Shown here one piece after another: positions 2,267 through 6,631 of a stretch of DNA of 6,631 nucleotides. This DNA is from Streptosporangiaceae bacterium. Lineage in GTDB: Bacteria > Actinomycetota > Actinomycetes > Streptosporangiales > Streptosporangiaceae. A program made the translations under genes and the position numbers. Under the pieces are notes generated by a model. It saw only the letters and a list, made by a program, of their open reading frames with translations. It did no database searches and was not told the DNA's origin. Position 1 is the first letter of the stretch, and each line of letters starts with the position of its first letter. The stretch covers positions 1 through 6,631 of the forward strand of contig JASHOI010000805.1 in NCBI GenBank assembly GCA_030041195.1, in the 5' to 3' direction.

Positions 2267-3457
2267 TCAGCAGATGCGGGGGAGGGGGTCGCCCACCAGC
2301 AGGTCAACGATCCTGGTGCCGCCGAAGGCGGTCTTGAGCTGCACGATGCCCGGCGGATCGGCGGTGACCTGCCCGATCACGGCCGCATGCTCGCCGAGCG
2401 GATGGGCCCGCAACGCGGCGAGGGCCCGGTCGGCCTGGTCTGGTTCCACCACGGCGACCATGCGCCCCTCGCACGCCACGTACATCGGGTCGATGCCGAG
2501 CAGTTCGGCGGCGCCGCGCACCTCGGGACGCACCGGGATGTCGTTCTCGCTGACCATGACGCCCACGTTGGCGGCCTTGGCGATCTCGTTCAGGATCGTG
2601 GCCACCCCGCCGCGGGTCGCGTCGCGCAGCGCGCGGACCCCGTGGGTTTCGGACAGCAGCCCGGCCACCAGCCCGCTGAGCGGTGCGGTGTCCGAGGTCA
2701 CGTCCGCCTCGATGTCCAGCTCGCCGCGGGCAAGCATGATCGTGACCCCGTGGTCGCCGATCGGGCCGGAGACGATGATCGCGTCCCCGGGCCGCGCGTT
2801 CGCGACGCCCAGGTCGAGACCGTCCTCGACGGTGCCGACACCGGCCGTGTTGATGTAGCAGCCGTCGGCCTTGCCCTTCTCCACCACCTTGGTGTCGCCG
2901 GTGACCACCTGGACGCCCGCGGCGTCGGCGGCCTCGCGCATGGACCGGACTATTCTGGTCAGGTCCGCGACCGGGAAGCCTTCCTCCAGGATGAAGCCGG
3001 CCGACAGGAACAGCGGGCTGGCGCCGGACATCGCCAGGTCGTTGACCGTGCCGTTGACGGCCAGGTCACCGATGCTTCCGCCGGGGAAGAACAGCGGCGA
3101 CACGACGTAGGAATCGGTCGTGAGCGCCAGGCGCGCCCCGCCGACCTGCAGCCGGGCGGCGTCCTCGAGCGGCTCGAGCAGGGGGTTGCGGAACTCGTCG
3201 AGGAAGATCGCCTCGATCAGGGTCTGGGTGGCCTTGCCCCCGGCCCCGTGCGACATGGTGATCCGCTCTTCCTTGACCCGCGGGCGGCTGCGGCGGGCCC
3301 GGTCGATGCGCTCGAGCACCAGTTCCTCGCGGACCGTGCCCGGCAGCGGCTGCGGGGAGCCGCGCCGGGCGCCGCTGGCCTCCTCTTCGCGGGCCTGCTC
3401 TTCGTGGACCTTGAGGGCCTCGGCCACCCAGCCGAGGTTCTGCTGGCCGGCGGTCAT
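2267..3457 (-). CDS. hypE: HypE, carbamoyl dehydratase (cyanide ligand synthesis)
   Basis: HypE accepts a carbamoyl group from HypF on its C-terminal cysteine and dehydrates it with ATP to a thiocyanate, the cyanide donor for the HypC-HypD iron. The C-terminus reads PRIC, so the acceptor Cys396 is present. It has the PurM/AIRS-type ATP fold: SHGAGGKA (69-76), then DSYVVSPLFFPGGSIGDLAVN, GDTKVVEKGKADG and DATRGGVATILNE. The product is 396 residues against about 330-350 for typical HypE. The excess is N-terminal: about 60 residues precede the usual start of similarity near KEERIT, including a charged, probably helical stretch (EEQAREEEASGARR). The ATG at 3457 is well supported: it overlaps the hypD stop as ATGA, and a perfect AAGGAGG lies 10 bases upstream. 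A GTG at 3319 (350 residues) is a possible internal start, with a GAGGAA just before it. Confidence 0.96.
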   Translation of the reverse strand: MTAGQQNLGWVAEALKVHEEQAREEEASGARRGSPQPLPGTVREELVLERIDRARRSRPRVKEERITMSHGAGGKATQTLIEAIFLDEFRNPLLEPLEDAARLQVGGARLALTTDSYVVSPLFFPGGSIGDLAVNGTVNDLAMSGASPLFLSAGFILEEGFPVADLTRIVRSMREAADAAGVQVVTGDTKVVEKGKADGCYINTAGVGTVEDGLDLGVANARPGDAIIVSGPIGDHGVTIMLARGELDIEADVTSDTAPLSGLVAGLLSETHGVRALRDATRGGVATILNEIAKAANVGVMVSENDIPVRPEVRGAAELLGIDPMYVACEGRMVAVVEPDQADRALAALRAHPLGEHAAVIGQVTADPPGIVQLKTAFGGTRIVDLLVGDPLPRIC

Positions 3458-4592: not shown

Positions 4593-4865
4593 CTACTCGA
4601 TCCGTGATTCGGCCAGCGCGGCGAGCTCGTCCTCGTAGGCCTGGCCGATCCCCTCGAGGAACTGCATGGCCGCCGCGGCCTCGGCCTCGTCGATCTTCGA
4701 CAGGGCGAACCCGACGTGGATCAGCACCCACTCGCCGGGCTTGGGCGGATCGTCGGACAGCAGGCCGATATTGATGACGCGGCGAACACCGCTCACGTCC
4801 ACCCGGGCCAGGTCGGGCTGATCGGGCACGAACTCGATCACCTCACCGGGTATGCCGAGGCACAT
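4593..4865 (-). CDS. hypC: HypC, Fe(CN)2CO chaperone
   Basis: HypC (HypC/HybG/HupF family) partners HypD during Fe(CN)2CO assembly and carries the iron unit to the hydrogenase large-subunit precursor. The 90-residue product begins MCLGIPGEV; after Met removal, Cys2 is the essential iron-unit ligand. The conserved HVGFALSKID lies at residues 50-59, with His50. The middle is the expected small beta-barrel, and a charged helical C-terminus (DEAEAAAAMQFLEGIGQAYEDEL) follows. AAGGGG, ending eight bases before the ATG, is a good ribosome binding site. The gene lies 13 bases after the protease and 8 before hypD. Its partner HypD follows directly, consistent with co-production of the complex. Confidence 0.96.
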   Translation of the reverse strand: MCLGIPGEVIEFVPDQPDLARVDVSGVRRVINIGLLSDDPPKPGEWVLIHVGFALSKIDEAEAAAAMQFLEGIGQAYEDELAALAESRIE

Positions 4866-4878
4866 GTGATCAACCCCT

Positions 4879-5523
4879 TCACGATCGGCGGCTGCTGCCG
4901 GCGGCTGGTTGCCGGTCTGCCTCGGCGGGCAGGCCGTCTGCCCCGGGGGGCAGGCTGTCTGTCTCGGCGGGCTGGCCGGCTGCGTCGGCTGGCCGGCCCC
5001 CTTCGGCCACGGATCCGGCGGCTTCGCCGGCTCCGGCGGCGCGTACCAGGTCGAGCACGATCCGCACCGCCTCGTCGACCGCGGCGGTGACCGGCGCGCT
5101 CAGCCCGATCCGTTCATCGATGCTGGCCGGCTCGCAGCCGACCAGGAGCACCCGCCCGGCTTCGGCGCCGAGCAGGTTCAGCATCCCGAACACAACGTCA
5201 GGCTGCATGCCATGACCGTCAAGTAGCGGGATTCCCCTACCCGGCTCGGGCGGCTCGGGCGGCGCCGCCGGGGCACCGGGGTCCAGCTCCATGACGTACA
5301 CCGTGCCCGGGTCGCCGCCGCGCGGCGTGGCGTCGACCAGGATCGTGGTCTCAAAGCCTTCGGCCAGGTCGTAGGCCAGGTGCATGCCGCTGATGCCGTA
5401 GTCGGCGACCCGGACCCAGTCCGGCAGCCCGGCGGAGGCCAGCCGGCCGGCGACCTCGACGCCGAACCCGTCGTCACCAAGAAAGATGTTGCCGACCCCG
5501 GCGATCAGCATCCGCCCGGTCAC
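4879..5523 (-). CDS. [NiFe]-hydrogenase maturation endopeptidase (M52, HyaD/HycI-like) with repeat-built tail
   Basis: This family cuts the C-terminal extension from the hydrogenase large subunit once nickel is inserted. The product is 214 residues from a GTG at 5523 that overlaps the preceding stop as GTGA. An in-frame ATG at 5511 (MLIAGVGN) is an alternative and closer to the usual family N-terminus. Motifs are GVGNIFLGDDGFG (residues 9-21), where Asp18 sits at the position of the nickel-sensing acidic residue of HybD; LVDATPRGG with Asp64; and LLDGHGM with His104, the likely third metal contact. GCEPASIDERIGLS (129-142) is also typical. A proline-rich insert (about 81-95) precedes the HGM motif. 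The core ends near residue 162. Residues 163-214 are a low-complexity Ala/Gly/Pro/Glu/Asp tail containing four seven-residue repeats, unusual for a family of about 150-165 residues. Position just before hypC is consistent with maturation. Which hydrogenase it serves cannot be told from this window. Confidence 0.93.
   Translation of the reverse strand: MTGRMLIAGVGNIFLGDDGFGVEVAGRLASAGLPDWVRVADYGISGMHLAYDLAEGFETTILVDATPRGGDPGTVYVMELDPGAPAAPPEPPEPGRGIPLLDGHGMQPDVVFGMLNLLGAEAGRVLLVGCEPASIDERIGLSAPVTAAVDEAVRIVLDLVRAAGAGEAAGSVAEGGRPADAAGQPAETDSLPPGADGLPAEADRQPAAGSSRRS
4915..4998 (-). repeat. 21-bp in-frame tandem repeat encoding the protease tail
   Basis: Four adjacent 21-bp units (4915-4935, 4936-4956, 4957-4977, 4978-4998) with a + strand core like GTCTGCCTCGGCGGGCAGG are imperfect copies. 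On the - strand they encode GRPADAA, GQPAETD, SLPPGAD and GLPAEAD, residues 176-203 of the maturation protease. A degenerate fifth protein unit (RQPAAGS) follows. Expansion by replication slippage is the likely origin. Confidence 0.85.
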
Positions 5524-6212
5524 CGTGCCGCCGCCTCGGCCCGGCCGAGCTCGGCCAGCGTCAGCTCCCACAGGATGTGGTAGACGGTGGTCTGCGCCTC
5601 CTGAATCCGGTGCACCGATGACGACGGCGCGACGAACAGGTAGTCGATGCTCCCCATCTCTGCCATCTTCCCGCCCTGGTAGCCGGCGAAGCCGATCGTG
5701 AGCAGCCCGCGCCGGCTCGCCTCGTCGAACGCACGCAGCAGGTTCTCCGAGTTGCCGCTGGTGGACAGGCCCACCGCGATGTCGTTGCGGCGGCCGAAGG
5801 CGGCGATCTGCCGGGCGAAGACCACGTCGACGCCGATGTCGTTGCACAGCGCTGTCACGACAGAAGTGTCCGCTGCCAGCCCGAGCGCGGGCAGCGGCCT
5901 GGCGTCGCCGCCCGGGTTCAGGAACGTCGTCACGAGCTGCTGCGCGTCGGTGGCACTGCCGCCGTTGCCGAAGGCCAGCAGCCGCCCGCCAGCGGCGAAC
6001 CTGGCGGCGGCGTCGGCGGCGCAGGACATCAGCCGGGCGCCGTCGCGCTCACTGATCACCCGGCGCAGCTCCATGATCTCCTCGGCCTTGGCGACCGTGG
6101 ACCGGCGCACCTCCTCCAGCACGGCGGACATGTCGGTCTTGCCGGAGTAAAGGAACGGGTAGAGCGACTCCATCGAACCCGCGCCTGGCTCGCCCTGCCC
6201 CATCCCGGTCAT
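5520..6212 (-). CDS. SIS-domain protein, GmhA-like but lacking key isomerase residues
   Basis: The 230-residue product has a sugar-isomerase (SIS) fold of the phosphoheptose isomerase type. Motifs are LLAFGNGGSATDAQQ (residues 78-92), CNDIGVD (123-129), the phosphosugar loop STSGNS (150-155) and HRIQEAQTTVYHILWE (201-216). It would probably be labelled sedoheptulose-7-phosphate isomerase by similarity. Aligning by eye to E. coli GmhA as I recall it, substrate Ser55 is kept (Ser86) and Gln172 and His180 are kept (Gln204, His212). Zinc ligand His61 is Gln92 and catalytic Glu65 is Thr96. Classical isomerase activity is therefore doubtful. The start at 6212 overlaps the upstream stop as ATGA; ATG at 6203 has better spacing (9 bases) from GGGGAG, and MESLYPF at 6173 may be where conservation begins. 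The gene overlaps the protease by GTGA. Coupling to the hyp genes suggests a role in hydrogenase maturation or its control; the actual function is unknown. Confidence 0.88.
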   Translation of the reverse strand: MTGMGQGEPGAGSMESLYPFLYSGKTDMSAVLEEVRRSTVAKAEEIMELRRVISERDGARLMSCAADAAARFAAGGRLLAFGNGGSATDAQQLVTTFLNPGGDARPLPALGLAADTSVVTALCNDIGVDVVFARQIAAFGRRNDIAVGLSTSGNSENLLRAFDEASRRGLLTIGFAGYQGGKMAEMGSIDYLFVAPSSSVHRIQEAQTTVYHILWELTLAELGRAEAAAR

Positions 6213-6439
6213 CTCCCCACGACCGCGATCGCTTCCCTGGCGTGCACGAGGATCGTGTCCCCGACGGCCGCGCTGACCAGCGCGACGCTGACCTCTTCCT
6301 CGCCCTGGCCAGTGTCGACGATCGCGAGGCCGTCGTCGAGCAGGCGCACGATCGTCACCGGCACCGCCGTGTCCGAGCACGTGATGCAGACCTCATCGTG
6401 GCCCCGCCCGCCTCCCCATCCCACTTCACAGTTGCTCAT
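6209..6439 (-). CDS. Divergent HypC/HupF-like small protein with internal CxxC
   Basis: This 76-residue protein resembles the HypC beta-barrel in its second half: VTIVRLLDDGLAIVDTG, EEEVSVALV, then GDTILVHAREAIAVV, which parallels the VGD-LVHVGFAI pattern of HypC with His66 at the conserved position. It does not begin with MCLGIPG. The cysteines nearest that position are an internal pair, C18-I-T-C21, preceded by a glycine-rich 17-residue leader that also has Cys4. The codon before Cys18 is GTC, not a start codon, so no alternative start puts a cysteine at position 2 there. ATG at 6439 is supported by GGGAG seven bases upstream and by an ATGA overlap with the preceding stop. Its own stop overlaps the next gene by ATGA. 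Assignment to the HypC family rests on context and a by-eye match; another small barrel protein remains possible. Confidence 0.82.
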   Translation of the reverse strand: MSNCEVGWGGGRGHDEVCITCSDTAVPVTIVRLLDDGLAIVDTGQGEEEVSVALVSAAVGDTILVHAREAIAVVGR

Positions 6440-6631
6440 GTCACCACTCCCGGGCCGAGCAGCCCCGGCTGCTCGAAGAAAACATGCACGAGCTCCCAGA
6501 GCACGTGATACCCGGTTACCTGAGTTTCCTTAACGATCCGAGGGTCGGCTGATCTGGCCACGATCAGGTGATCGACGGCGTCGCTCGAGCCGATCGCGCC
6601 GCCGTCGCCGCCGACGAGGGCGACGGTCAGC
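6436..6631 (-). CDS. Second SIS-domain protein, C-terminal 64 residues (5' end outside window)
   Basis: The frame is open from the right edge of the window to a TGA at 6438-6436, giving 64 residues. It aligns with the C-terminus of the neighbouring complete SIS protein: the block IVKETQVTGYHVLWEL shares 9 of 16 positions with RIQEAQTTVYHILWEL. It also has the preceding LTVALVGGDGG strand-loop and an HLIVA strand matching LTIGFAGYQGG and YLFVA. It is therefore a paralogue or ancient duplicate. At the position of the GmhA zinc-ligand Gln it has Lys34, while the later His (His42) is kept. A short tail, FFEQPGLLGPGVVT, ends the protein. Its stop overlaps the start of the HypC-like gene as ATGA. 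Codons in its last 30 residues (GTT AAG GAA ACT GTA TAT) are less GC-rich than in neighbouring genes. The gene is too truncated here for a functional call. Confidence 0.8.
   Translation of the reverse strand, partial: LTVALVGGDGGAIGSSDAVDHLIVARSADPRIVKETQVTGYHVLWELVHVFFEQPGLLGPGVVT
6447..6451 (-). promoter_or_regulatory. Shine-Dalgarno for the HypC-like gene
   Basis: GGGAG on the - strand lies seven bases before the ATG at 6439, inside the end of the upstream SIS gene. It supports that start over the in-frame GTG five codons downstream. Confidence 0.6.
6456..6475 (-). other. Perfect inverted repeat before the HypC-like ribosome binding site
   Basis: CGAGCAGCC at 6456-6464 and its exact complement at 6467-6475 are separated by two bases. 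In the - strand transcript this makes an 8-bp GC-rich stem with a 4-base loop. It ends four bases before the GGGAG ribosome binding site and lies within the last codons of the SIS gene (EQPGLL). There is no T-tract, so it does not look like an intrinsic terminator. It could slow ribosomes or shape coupling at the junction, or be a by-product of GC-rich coding sequence. Confidence 0.5.

What the first reader, a model, noticed from the sequence alone, without database searches (positions are those of the whole stretch)
5520..6631. SIS / HypC-like / SIS module coupled to a hydrogenase maturation operon
Two paralogous SIS-domain proteins flank a divergent HypC-like protein. Both junctions are ATGA overlaps, and a GTGA overlap leads into the maturation protease. 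Seen directly: the overlaps, the 9-of-16 match between the SIS C-termini, and the HypC-like barrel pattern. Inferred: the three proteins form one functional unit, perhaps a SIS heterodimer working with the small barrel protein, that adds a step or a control to [NiFe] maturation. None of the canonical HypA-F steps needs a phosphosugar-binding fold. I recall SIS proteins annotated as phosphoheptose isomerases in other actinobacterial hydrogenase clusters, so the association may be widespread, but I cannot check it and know no assigned function.
Basis: partly seen in the sequence, partly recalled or inferred. Interest (0 to 1): 0.72.

Follow-up and report, generated by a model that had tools for sequence, protein, structure and literature searches.

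The report
Split sugar-isomerase enzyme in hydrogenase maturation
Many bacteria that carry hydrogenases of the air-scavenging type have, next to the genes that build the enzyme's metal centre, a pair of sugar-isomerase-like proteins that each keep half of one active site plus a small partner protein; it looks like an unassigned enzyme that may make a missing building block of that metal centre.

Summary
In detail: SIS2 (C-terminus only, cut by the window edge), a HypC-like protein and SIS1 overlap by ATGA and ATGA, and SIS1 overlaps the protease by GTGA. The trio is widespread. All 80 related loci kept have SIS2 beside SIS1, 72 of 80 with the HypC-like gene between; SIS2-SIS1 and SIS2-HypC-like fusions occur. 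SIS1 and SIS2 descend from one duplication of a GmhA-like isomerase and split its zinc ligands: SIS2 keeps His/Glu/His, SIS1 keeps the phosphate loop and the neighbour-supplied Gln. The composite site is readable in 107 of 109 loci (two gaps), the reverse in none. In 346 actinobacterial genomes SIS1 tracks HypD and met HypX, the known CO-ligand enzyme, once; group 1h hydrogenases use either Hyp set. Best reading: a dedicated maturation enzyme with a composite active site feeding HypCD; supply of the CO ligand is the leading, unproven job. Against it: 28 of 67 HypD+ COX1+ genomes have neither gene, and whole Hyp sets were exchanged, not SIS alone. gmhA in such loci is already drawn in print, without a function that I found.

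The parts
6436..6631 (-). SIS2, C-terminal 64 residues only; carries the SIS2-type Lys (for GmhA Gln) and the Tyr-His motif (VKE...YHVLWEL)
   Evidence: class by comparison with 109 SIS2 domains, in which the window's own piece was not included
6436..6439 (-). ATGA overlap SIS2 stop / HypC-like start
   Evidence: read directly
6209..6439 (-). HypC-like protein (HypC*), 76 aa; C18-x-T-C21-x-D23 and H66; the extra upstream Cys found in 83 of 98 relatives is Gly here
   Evidence: PF01455 35.5 bits; fold matches HypC; signature
6209..6212 (-). ATGA overlap HypC-like stop / SIS1 start
   Evidence: read directly
5520..6212 (-). SIS1, 230 aa: keeps GNGGS (82-86), STSGNS (150-155), R202, Q204, E205, H212; GmhA His and Glu replaced by Q92 and T96
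5520..5523 (-). GTGA overlap SIS1 stop / protease start
   Evidence: read directly
4879..5523 (-). hydrogenase maturation protease with a low-complexity C-terminal tail
   Evidence: TIGR00072 104.8 bits, HycI
4593..4865 (-). canonical HypC (MCLGIPG)
   Evidence: PF01455 83.9 bits
3454..4581 (-). HypD
   Evidence: PF01924 522.7 bits
2267..3457 (-). HypE with 69 residues before HGAGG
   Evidence: TIGR02124 455.7 bits
1894..2223 (-). HypA
   Evidence: PF01155 105.5 bits
1040..1894 (-). HypB with His-rich N-terminus
   Evidence: TIGR00073 271.5 bits
2..991 (+). HypF, C-terminal part, convergent
   Evidence: HypF_C_2 281.4 bits

Best explanation
SIS1, SIS2 and the HypC-like protein are a dedicated module of the Hyp machinery of high-affinity [NiFe] hydrogenases. 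Shown by comparison: SIS1 and SIS2 come from one duplication of a GmhA-like phosphosugar isomerase whose single-copy relatives also sit beside hypC-hypD, and they divided the active site: SIS2 keeps the metal ligands and base/acid (His61, Glu65, His180), SIS1 keeps the phosphate-binding loop and the Gln that in GmhA comes from the neighbouring subunit. Inferred with good confidence (about 0.8): they form an obligate heteromer with one working metal/phosphosugar site per SIS1-SIS2 pair. Inferred with less (about 0.6): the HypC-like protein docks this enzyme on HypCD. Inferred with least (about 0.35): its product supplies the Fe(CN)2CO unit with its CO ligand, standing in for HypX, by metal-enediolate chemistry on a phosphosugar. 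The confidence below is for the enzymatic-step reading as a whole, not for CO alone.
For: Complementary residues: SIS2 His61 109/109, Glu65 109/109, His180 107 (2 gaps); SIS1 Gln172 110/110, Ser-Thr-Ser...Ser loop 109-110 of 110, His61 0 and Glu65 0 of 109 read (1 gap); complete composite site readable in 107 of 109 loci, reverse 0 of 109 (one place was fetched twice, so 106 of 108 distinct). In GmhA zinc is held by H61, E65, H183 of one monomer and Q175 of the neighbour (PMC5387315, passages). SIS1 and SIS2 are clades of 110 and 109 (support 99, 100), each holding one half of the Thermus and Mycobacterium proteins. SIS2-SIS1 in one frame at 20 loci (two doubtful), SIS2-HypC-like in 12; the fused model is confident (pTM 0.87) and matches GmhA and tandem-SIS GlmS. 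Hydrogenase link. HypX: of 67 HypD+ COX1+ genomes 31 have SIS1 only, 8 HypX only, 0 both, 28 neither (Fisher p 0.006; p 0.018 if six weak COX1 genomes, all with neither gene, are put back). HypX clusters sit at two separate places within the group 1h tree.
Against: 28 of 67 HypD+ COX1+ genomes have neither gene (34 of 73 with the weak COX1 matches). Of these 28 I looked at 20 regions: two are group 1h clusters (L118, L129) and two show the other large subunit of this kind, taken as group 2a (L125, L133). 10 of 41 SIS1+HypD+ genomes lack a strong COX1 match, so the module is not strictly aerobic. SIS and HypX clusters differ in the whole Hyp set (HypD about 400 against 611-728 bits), so the swap is not of SIS alone, and SIS-like HypD (550-609 bits) also occurs without SIS (L124, L126-L128). 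The Fisher tests ignore relatedness. C. necator pHG1 has both genes. No substrate, metal or interaction was measured; no chemistry is known to me by which a SIS fold makes CO. On stretches over 18 kb, L050, L069 and L082 have the SIS pair with neither the HypC-like gene nor a hyp marker, and L068 only a HypA match.
Confidence: 0.55

Rival explanations
1. Sensor or gate: the SIS pair binds a phosphosugar and, through the HypC-like protein, switches Hyp-dependent maturation on or off with the carbon state of the cell. No catalysis is needed.
For: SIS domains are common in regulators (established knowledge); the module is joined to HypC/HypD; one pocket is rewritten in SIS2 (S121 to Asp in 78, S124 to Cys in 70 of 109).
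Against: The metal ligands and the catalytic base and acid are kept wherever readable in SIS2 while the phosphate loop is kept in SIS1, a pattern of catalysis; in one cluster where no SIS1 was found the SIS2 part has lost both motifs (L133).
Confidence: 0.2
2. Oxygen-protection or storage scaffold for Fe(CN)2CO, working like HupF-HupK (HoxL-HoxV), with the HypC-like protein as second chaperone and the SIS pair as its platform.
For: A second HypC-type protein is part of the module; the review describes HupF-HupK as O2 protection (PMC12134894, passages).
Against: No large-subunit-like scaffold is among the three proteins; a scaffold would not need an intact metal/phosphosugar site.
Confidence: 0.1
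3. Iron or C1 donor: the SIS enzyme makes a metabolite used for Fe delivery, or a formyl/C1 unit passed on to HypCD, rather than CO itself.
For: The review treats the anaerobic CO source as open and the iron source as only recently linked to the Isc machinery (PMC12134894, passages); the HypC-like protein has a Cys-x-Thr-Cys-x-Asp motif and the HypC His (98 of 98) that could hold a metal.
Against: No direct evidence.
Confidence: 0.1
4. Ordinary heptose isomerase genes that happen to lie beside hyp genes.
For: Annotated as D-sedoheptulose 7-phosphate isomerase; GmhA is the nearest solved structure.
Against: Below the GmhA equivalog cut-off (128.8 against 209.45 bits); apart from ten GmhA-like genes, two of them from genomes that also hold a hydrogenase-type SIS; hydrogenase link in two phyla.
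Confidence: 0.03

Closest known systems
GmhA, sedoheptulose 7-phosphate isomerase (TIGR00441)
   Same: SIS_2 fold, GNGGS and STSGNS loops, the same set of metal ligands if SIS1 and SIS2 are taken together
   Different: two genes or two halves instead of one; SIS1 alone lacks two of the four ligands and SIS2 mostly lacks the Gln and the phosphate loop; below the equivalog cut-off; sits in hyp operons
Single hydrogenase-linked SIS protein (C. necator pHG1 H16_RS31885; Bradyrhizobium, Sphingopyxis)
   Same: lies between hypC and hypD of hydrogenase clusters; outside the SIS1/SIS2 clade but in the same hydrogenase-linked group
   Different: one protein with all four ligands; no HypC-like partner seen in those regions
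HypC / HupF (PF01455)
   Same: small barrel, passes Pfam cut-off, top structural matches are HypC
   Different: no N-terminal Met-Cys; Cys-x-Thr-Cys-x-Asp instead; below TIGR00074
HypX, CO-forming maturase
   Same: extra enzyme of the Hyp set in aerobes; found in place of the SIS module in some group 1h clusters
   Different: unrelated domains (formyltransferase, enoyl-CoA hydratase) and substrate class
Tandem-SIS proteins (GlmS isomerase domain, GKRP)
   Same: two SIS domains in one chain in the fused versions
   Different: sequence about 10 per cent identical in the structural alignment

Membership tests
GmhA | NCBIfam equivalog cut-off TIGR00441 (209.45 bits) | tested here: not met
   SIS1 128.8 bits
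GmhA | SIS_2 domain | tested here: met
   51.8 bits, cut-off 27
GmhA | His61, Glu65, His180 and Gln172 in one polypeptide | tested here: not met
   window SIS1 has Q92 and T96 at the His and Glu places; of 110 SIS1 domains none keeps either (1 gap each)
GmhA | isomerisation of sedoheptulose 7-phosphate | not testable with these tools
   no assay
HypC | PF01455 gathering score | tested here: met
   35.5, cut-off 28.5
HypC | N-terminal Met-Cys | tested here: not met
   starts MSNC; Cys-x-Thr-Cys-x-Asp at 18-23; that Cys2 is essential in HypC is recalled
HypC | TIGR00074 cut-off (48) | tested here: not met
   20.8 bits
HypC | HypC barrel fold | tested here: met
   model pLDDT 83; Foldseek ranks 1-6 are HypC, probability 1.00 but E 4e-3 to 1e-2, followed closely by proteasomal ATPase OB domains
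HypX-type CO maturase | formyltransferase plus enoyl-CoA hydratase domains | tested here: not met
   none in the trio; both in the C. necator HypX used as query
HypX-type CO maturase | provides the CO ligand | not testable with these tools
   indirect only: genome pattern
HupF-HupK protection pair | large-subunit-like HupK/HoxV partner | tested here: not met
   no such domain in the trio

The most novel reading that the evidence does not exclude
The SIS1-SIS2-HypC-like module is a second CO-ligand synthase of [NiFe] hydrogenases: a heteromeric GmhA-derived metalloenzyme that releases CO, or a direct CO precursor, from a phosphosugar enediolate and hands it through the HypC-like protein to HypCD. 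It would be the counterpart of HypX in bacteria with air-scavenging hydrogenases, and the single-SIS form in C. necator a candidate for the second, HypX-independent CO pathway reported for [NiFe] hydrogenases (PMC6802093, passages).
Probability: 0.3. Interest if true: 0.92.

Novelty: new variant of a known kind. Interest (0 to 1): 0.74.

Why it matters
[quoted passage not shown] it has no occurrence of 'SIS', 'sugar' or 'phosphoheptose'. Yet 44 of the 48 trio-bearing genomes searched have no full-length HypX. Here is a widespread, well-delimited enzyme inside their Hyp operons. Whatever its product, it is an unassigned step of hydrogenase maturation with an exact, testable active-site prediction, and it may be needed to make such hydrogenases in other hosts.

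Tried and rejected
Chance neighbours: rejected, because the link holds from the SIS side, from an even genome draw and in a second phylum. Plain GmhA: rejected by cut-off, clade and residues. HypX present everywhere as well: rejected, HypX above 350 bits in 4 of 48 trio genomes (42 of 49 records gave some match, the rest being short matches under 40 bits) and in 1 of 44 SIS1 genomes. Three of these five HypX copies (G131, G012, G027) form a deep clade whose loci show no hydrogenase marker. A clean exchange of SIS for HypX alone: rejected, the whole Hyp set differs. SIS only with COX1: rejected, 10 of 41 lack it. HypE N-terminal extension as a marker of SIS clusters: not clear-cut (rough motif in 56 of 91 SIS-cluster rows against 3 of 18 others; the HypX clusters gave no row). 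L048 and L079 as real SIS2-SIS1 fusions: doubtful (in L048 a HypC-like frame lies between; L079 is cut). Geometry of the composite site could not be measured: the structure tool returns no coordinates.

Literature: searches in the open-licence PMC library only. Prior mentions of the neighbourhood found there, all seen as passages: PMC5900883 (figure legend: a putative gmhA marked in a drawing of group 1h loci of Acidobacteria, S. avermitilis and Pyrinomonas; which of them bear it the legend does not say), PMC5445863 (table: MSMEG_2706 gmhA among hyp genes), PMC3231954 (GmhA with HypD and HypE in an association network, their relation 'not well understood'), PMC12727194 (table: SIS as one of the gene clusters near [NiFe] hydrogenases). 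PMC4767420 (passages) already notes that hypX is not always present in high-affinity H2 oxidisers, citing Constant 2011. None of the passages seen gives the SIS protein a function. Constant 2011, Schaefer 2013 and Buerstel 2016 were not read (the last is not held).
Full report
What is there. The window is a stretch of an actinobacterial hyp operon. Its nearest named relatives are Trebonia and Streptosporangiaceae, and no whole genome is held for it. On the - strand, in order of transcription: SIS2 (last 64 residues), HypC-like, SIS1, maturation protease, HypC, HypD, HypE, HypA, HypB; HypF is convergent.

How widespread. All 80 have SIS2 within 2.5 kb of SIS1; 72 of 80 have the HypC-like gene between them; 71 of 80 show a large-subunit gene or one of HypB-F in view. 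Of the nine others, four lie on pieces under 9 kb (L047, L066, L070, L079), and L044 and L068 show only a HypA match. I searched 48 of the 80 genomes (49 given, one not held): all 48 have a NiFe large-subunit match, 47 over the cut-off. Of eight of these that I checked for HypD, seven have it. These loci were chosen by likeness to SIS1, so they are not a random sample.

An even draw. Of 346 genomes drawn from the phylum, 171 have HypD, 44 have SIS1 at 200 bits or more, 11 have HypX and 202 have a strong COX1 match, my stand-in for aerobic respiration (209 matched, seven weak ones dropped). 41 of the 44 SIS1 genomes have HypD (Fisher p 5e-11). The three without it, G076, G212 and G272, have a group 1h large subunit or HypA/HypB next to the SIS genes (L106-L108). 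Where SIS1 and HypD positions were both listed (39 genomes), 30 lie on one contig within 15 kb and 9 on different contigs; none lie further apart on one contig. In a second phylum (centre: a MAG named Acidobacteria), 7 of 77 HypD+ genomes have a hydrogenase-type SIS at 267.9 bits or more, the next match being 195.7; six of the seven lie within 3 kb of HypD. There both the single form (L156, L157, L161) and the double form (L158-L160) sit in hyp clusters.

One duplication, two halves of an active site. In a tree of 235 SIS domains (the C. necator protein entered twice), with ten GmhA-like genes as outgroup, the hydrogenase-linked rows (226) split into seven single-copy rows (six proteins) and a clade of 219 (support 100) made of SIS1 (110, support 99) and SIS2 (109, support 100). 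Each of the two clades holds one half of the Thermus double protein and one of the two Mycobacterium proteins. These are FastTree supports only; the branch to the GmhA rows is weak (64), and related rows are not independent. Residues, with E. coli/Neisseria GmhA labels (Q172 is a recalled label): SIS2 keeps H61 109/109, E65 109/109, H180 107 (2 gaps), but has Lys at Q172 in 79 (Gln in 15), Asp at S121 in 78 and Cys at S124 in 70. SIS1 keeps Q172 110/110, the S-T-S...S loop 109-110 of 110, N53 and S55 109 (1 gap), R169 110/110 and H180 97; H61 and E65 are kept in none of 109 read (1 gap each). Single-copy rows and the ten GmhA-like genes keep all four ligands. In GmhA the zinc is bound by H61, E65 and H183 of one monomer and Q175 of the neighbour (PMC5387315, passages), and changes at these places lower activity (PMC5705639, passages). 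The composite site SIS2 (His, Glu, His) plus SIS1 (Gln) is readable in 107 of 109 loci; the two misses are alignment gaps (L058, L079); L068 and L162 are the same place, so 106 of 108 distinct. The reverse site is intact in none. In the window SIS1 has Q92 and T96 at the His and Glu places.

One unit. SIS2 and SIS1 are one open frame at 20 loci (two doubtful), in Thermus and in actinobacterial and second-phylum genomes; SIS2 and the HypC-like domain are one open frame at 12. A model of such a fusion (P0241, 46 rows) has pTM 0.87; its best structural matches are GmhA for one half and, over the whole chain, tandem-SIS proteins such as GlmS (TM 0.60 at rmsd 5.3). In one cluster (L133) no SIS1 was found and the SIS2 part has lost the His/Glu and Tyr-His motifs while the HypC-like part remains.

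The HypC-like protein. 98 relatives share C-x-T-C-x-D (C 97 and 98, T 92, D 97 of 98), mostly with one more Cys upstream (83 of 98; Gly in the window), and the HypC His (98 of 98). The model of the window's protein has five strands from 26 to 75 (51 of 76 residues at pLDDT 90 or more) after a loose N-terminus; the best PDB matches are HypC alone and in HypCD(E) complexes, with weak E-values (4e-3) and proteasomal OB domains close behind. Where SIS2-SIS1 is fused and hypD is in view, the HypC-like gene lies instead beside hypC-hypD in L137, L138, L146 and L148-L154. So it goes with both partners, which suggests an adaptor (inference). L126-L128 carry it without a detected SIS1 gene in the genome.

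HypX. The C. necator query (Pfam formyltransferase and enoyl-CoA hydratase domains) found copies above 350 bits in 4 of 48 trio genomes and in 11 of 346 of the draw, one of them with SIS1. Among the 67 HypD+ COX1+ genomes: SIS1 only 31, HypX only 8, both 0, neither 28 (p 0.006); among 104 HypD+ COX1- genomes: SIS1 only 9, both 1, neither 94. Six of the seven dropped weak COX1 genomes are HypD+ with neither gene; putting them back gives neither 34 of 73 and p 0.018. One 'neither' genome, G227, has a partial SIS match at a contig end 1.4 kb from HypD and may be miscounted. These tests ignore relatedness. The 8 genomes with HypX and HypD but no SIS1 all have HypX beside a hyp cluster, 7 of them with a group 1h large subunit in view. 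In a FastTree of 73 group 1h large subunits the seven HypX rows fall at two places among SIS rows, so one hydrogenase kind works with either set; 'SIS' there means SIS present, since HypX was not searched in all of those genomes. But HypD differs too (396-418 bits to the window HypD in HypX clusters, 611-728 in the 19 of 20 SIS regions where HypD is in view), so whole Hyp sets were exchanged, and HypD of 550-609 bits also occurs without SIS (L124, L126-L128). Of 20 'neither' regions fetched (of 28 genomes), two are group 1h clusters (L118, L129). In the second phylum HypX was found in 2 of 77 and not together with SIS. In a draw from the genus of G035 (a Streptomyces locus) SIS1 at 200 bits is rare (2 of 100, both already known loci); HypX could not be searched there. 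S. avermitilis is reported to have hypX (PMC4767420, passages). Group labels: 1h means best match to the C. necator actinobacterial-type large subunit; 2a, for the L002/L004 type, is recalled.

How it may work. Shown by comparison: a kept, split GmhA-type site; coupling to HypC/HypD genes; near-absence of HypX where SIS1 occurs. Inferred: SIS1 binds the phosphate end of a sugar, SIS2 holds the metal that polarises C1-C2 and supplies base and acid, giving an enediolate. Its use for CO release is a guess by analogy with CO-forming enediol chemistry (acireductone dioxygenase, recalled). The 2025 review states that exogenous CO can be built into the cofactor (PMC12134894, passages), so rescue by CO gas is a clean test.

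Known or new. That a putative gmhA lies in group 1h loci is in print (PMC5900883 legend). I found no assigned function, and no account of the SIS1/SIS2 division or of the pattern with HypX, in searches, which cover open-licence papers only. I therefore file it as a new variant of a known kind, with the CO reading as the bold case.

Noticed in passing
L109, L110 (genomes G097, G262): Full-length HypX relatives in genomes with no HypD match; a HypX used for something other than hydrogenase, or a lost hydrogenase.
   Followed up: partly
L103, L111, L113: A deep clade of HypX relatives with no hydrogenase marker nearby.
   Followed up: partly
L133 around 7044-7718: SIS2-HypC-like fusion whose SIS part has lost its motifs in a cluster without a detected SIS1, as if the pair decays together.
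   Followed up: partly
L024 9572-10660, L071 9767-10618: HypC-like and SIS1 lie in one open frame, a possible third kind of fusion.
   Followed up: no
window 2267-3457: HypE has 69 residues before HGAGG, with a basic stretch (RARRSRPRVKEERITM) seen in many SIS-type clusters.
   Followed up: partly
window 4879-5050: The protease ends in a long low-complexity tail rich in Ala, Gly, Pro and Glu.
   Followed up: no
L003 10617-10877: A small Uxx-star glutaredoxin-like gene follows the SIS2-SIS1 fusion of Thermus; PMC5900883 also marks a glutaredoxin in group 1h loci.
   Followed up: no
L002, L135, L139-L143, L145: A DUF6390 protein matches in several SIS-type hyp clusters.
   Followed up: no
SIS2 domains, GmhA Ser124 place: SIS2 has Cys at this place in 70 and Asp in 22 of 109, and Asp at Ser121 in 78; the second pocket may have a new role.
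   Followed up: no
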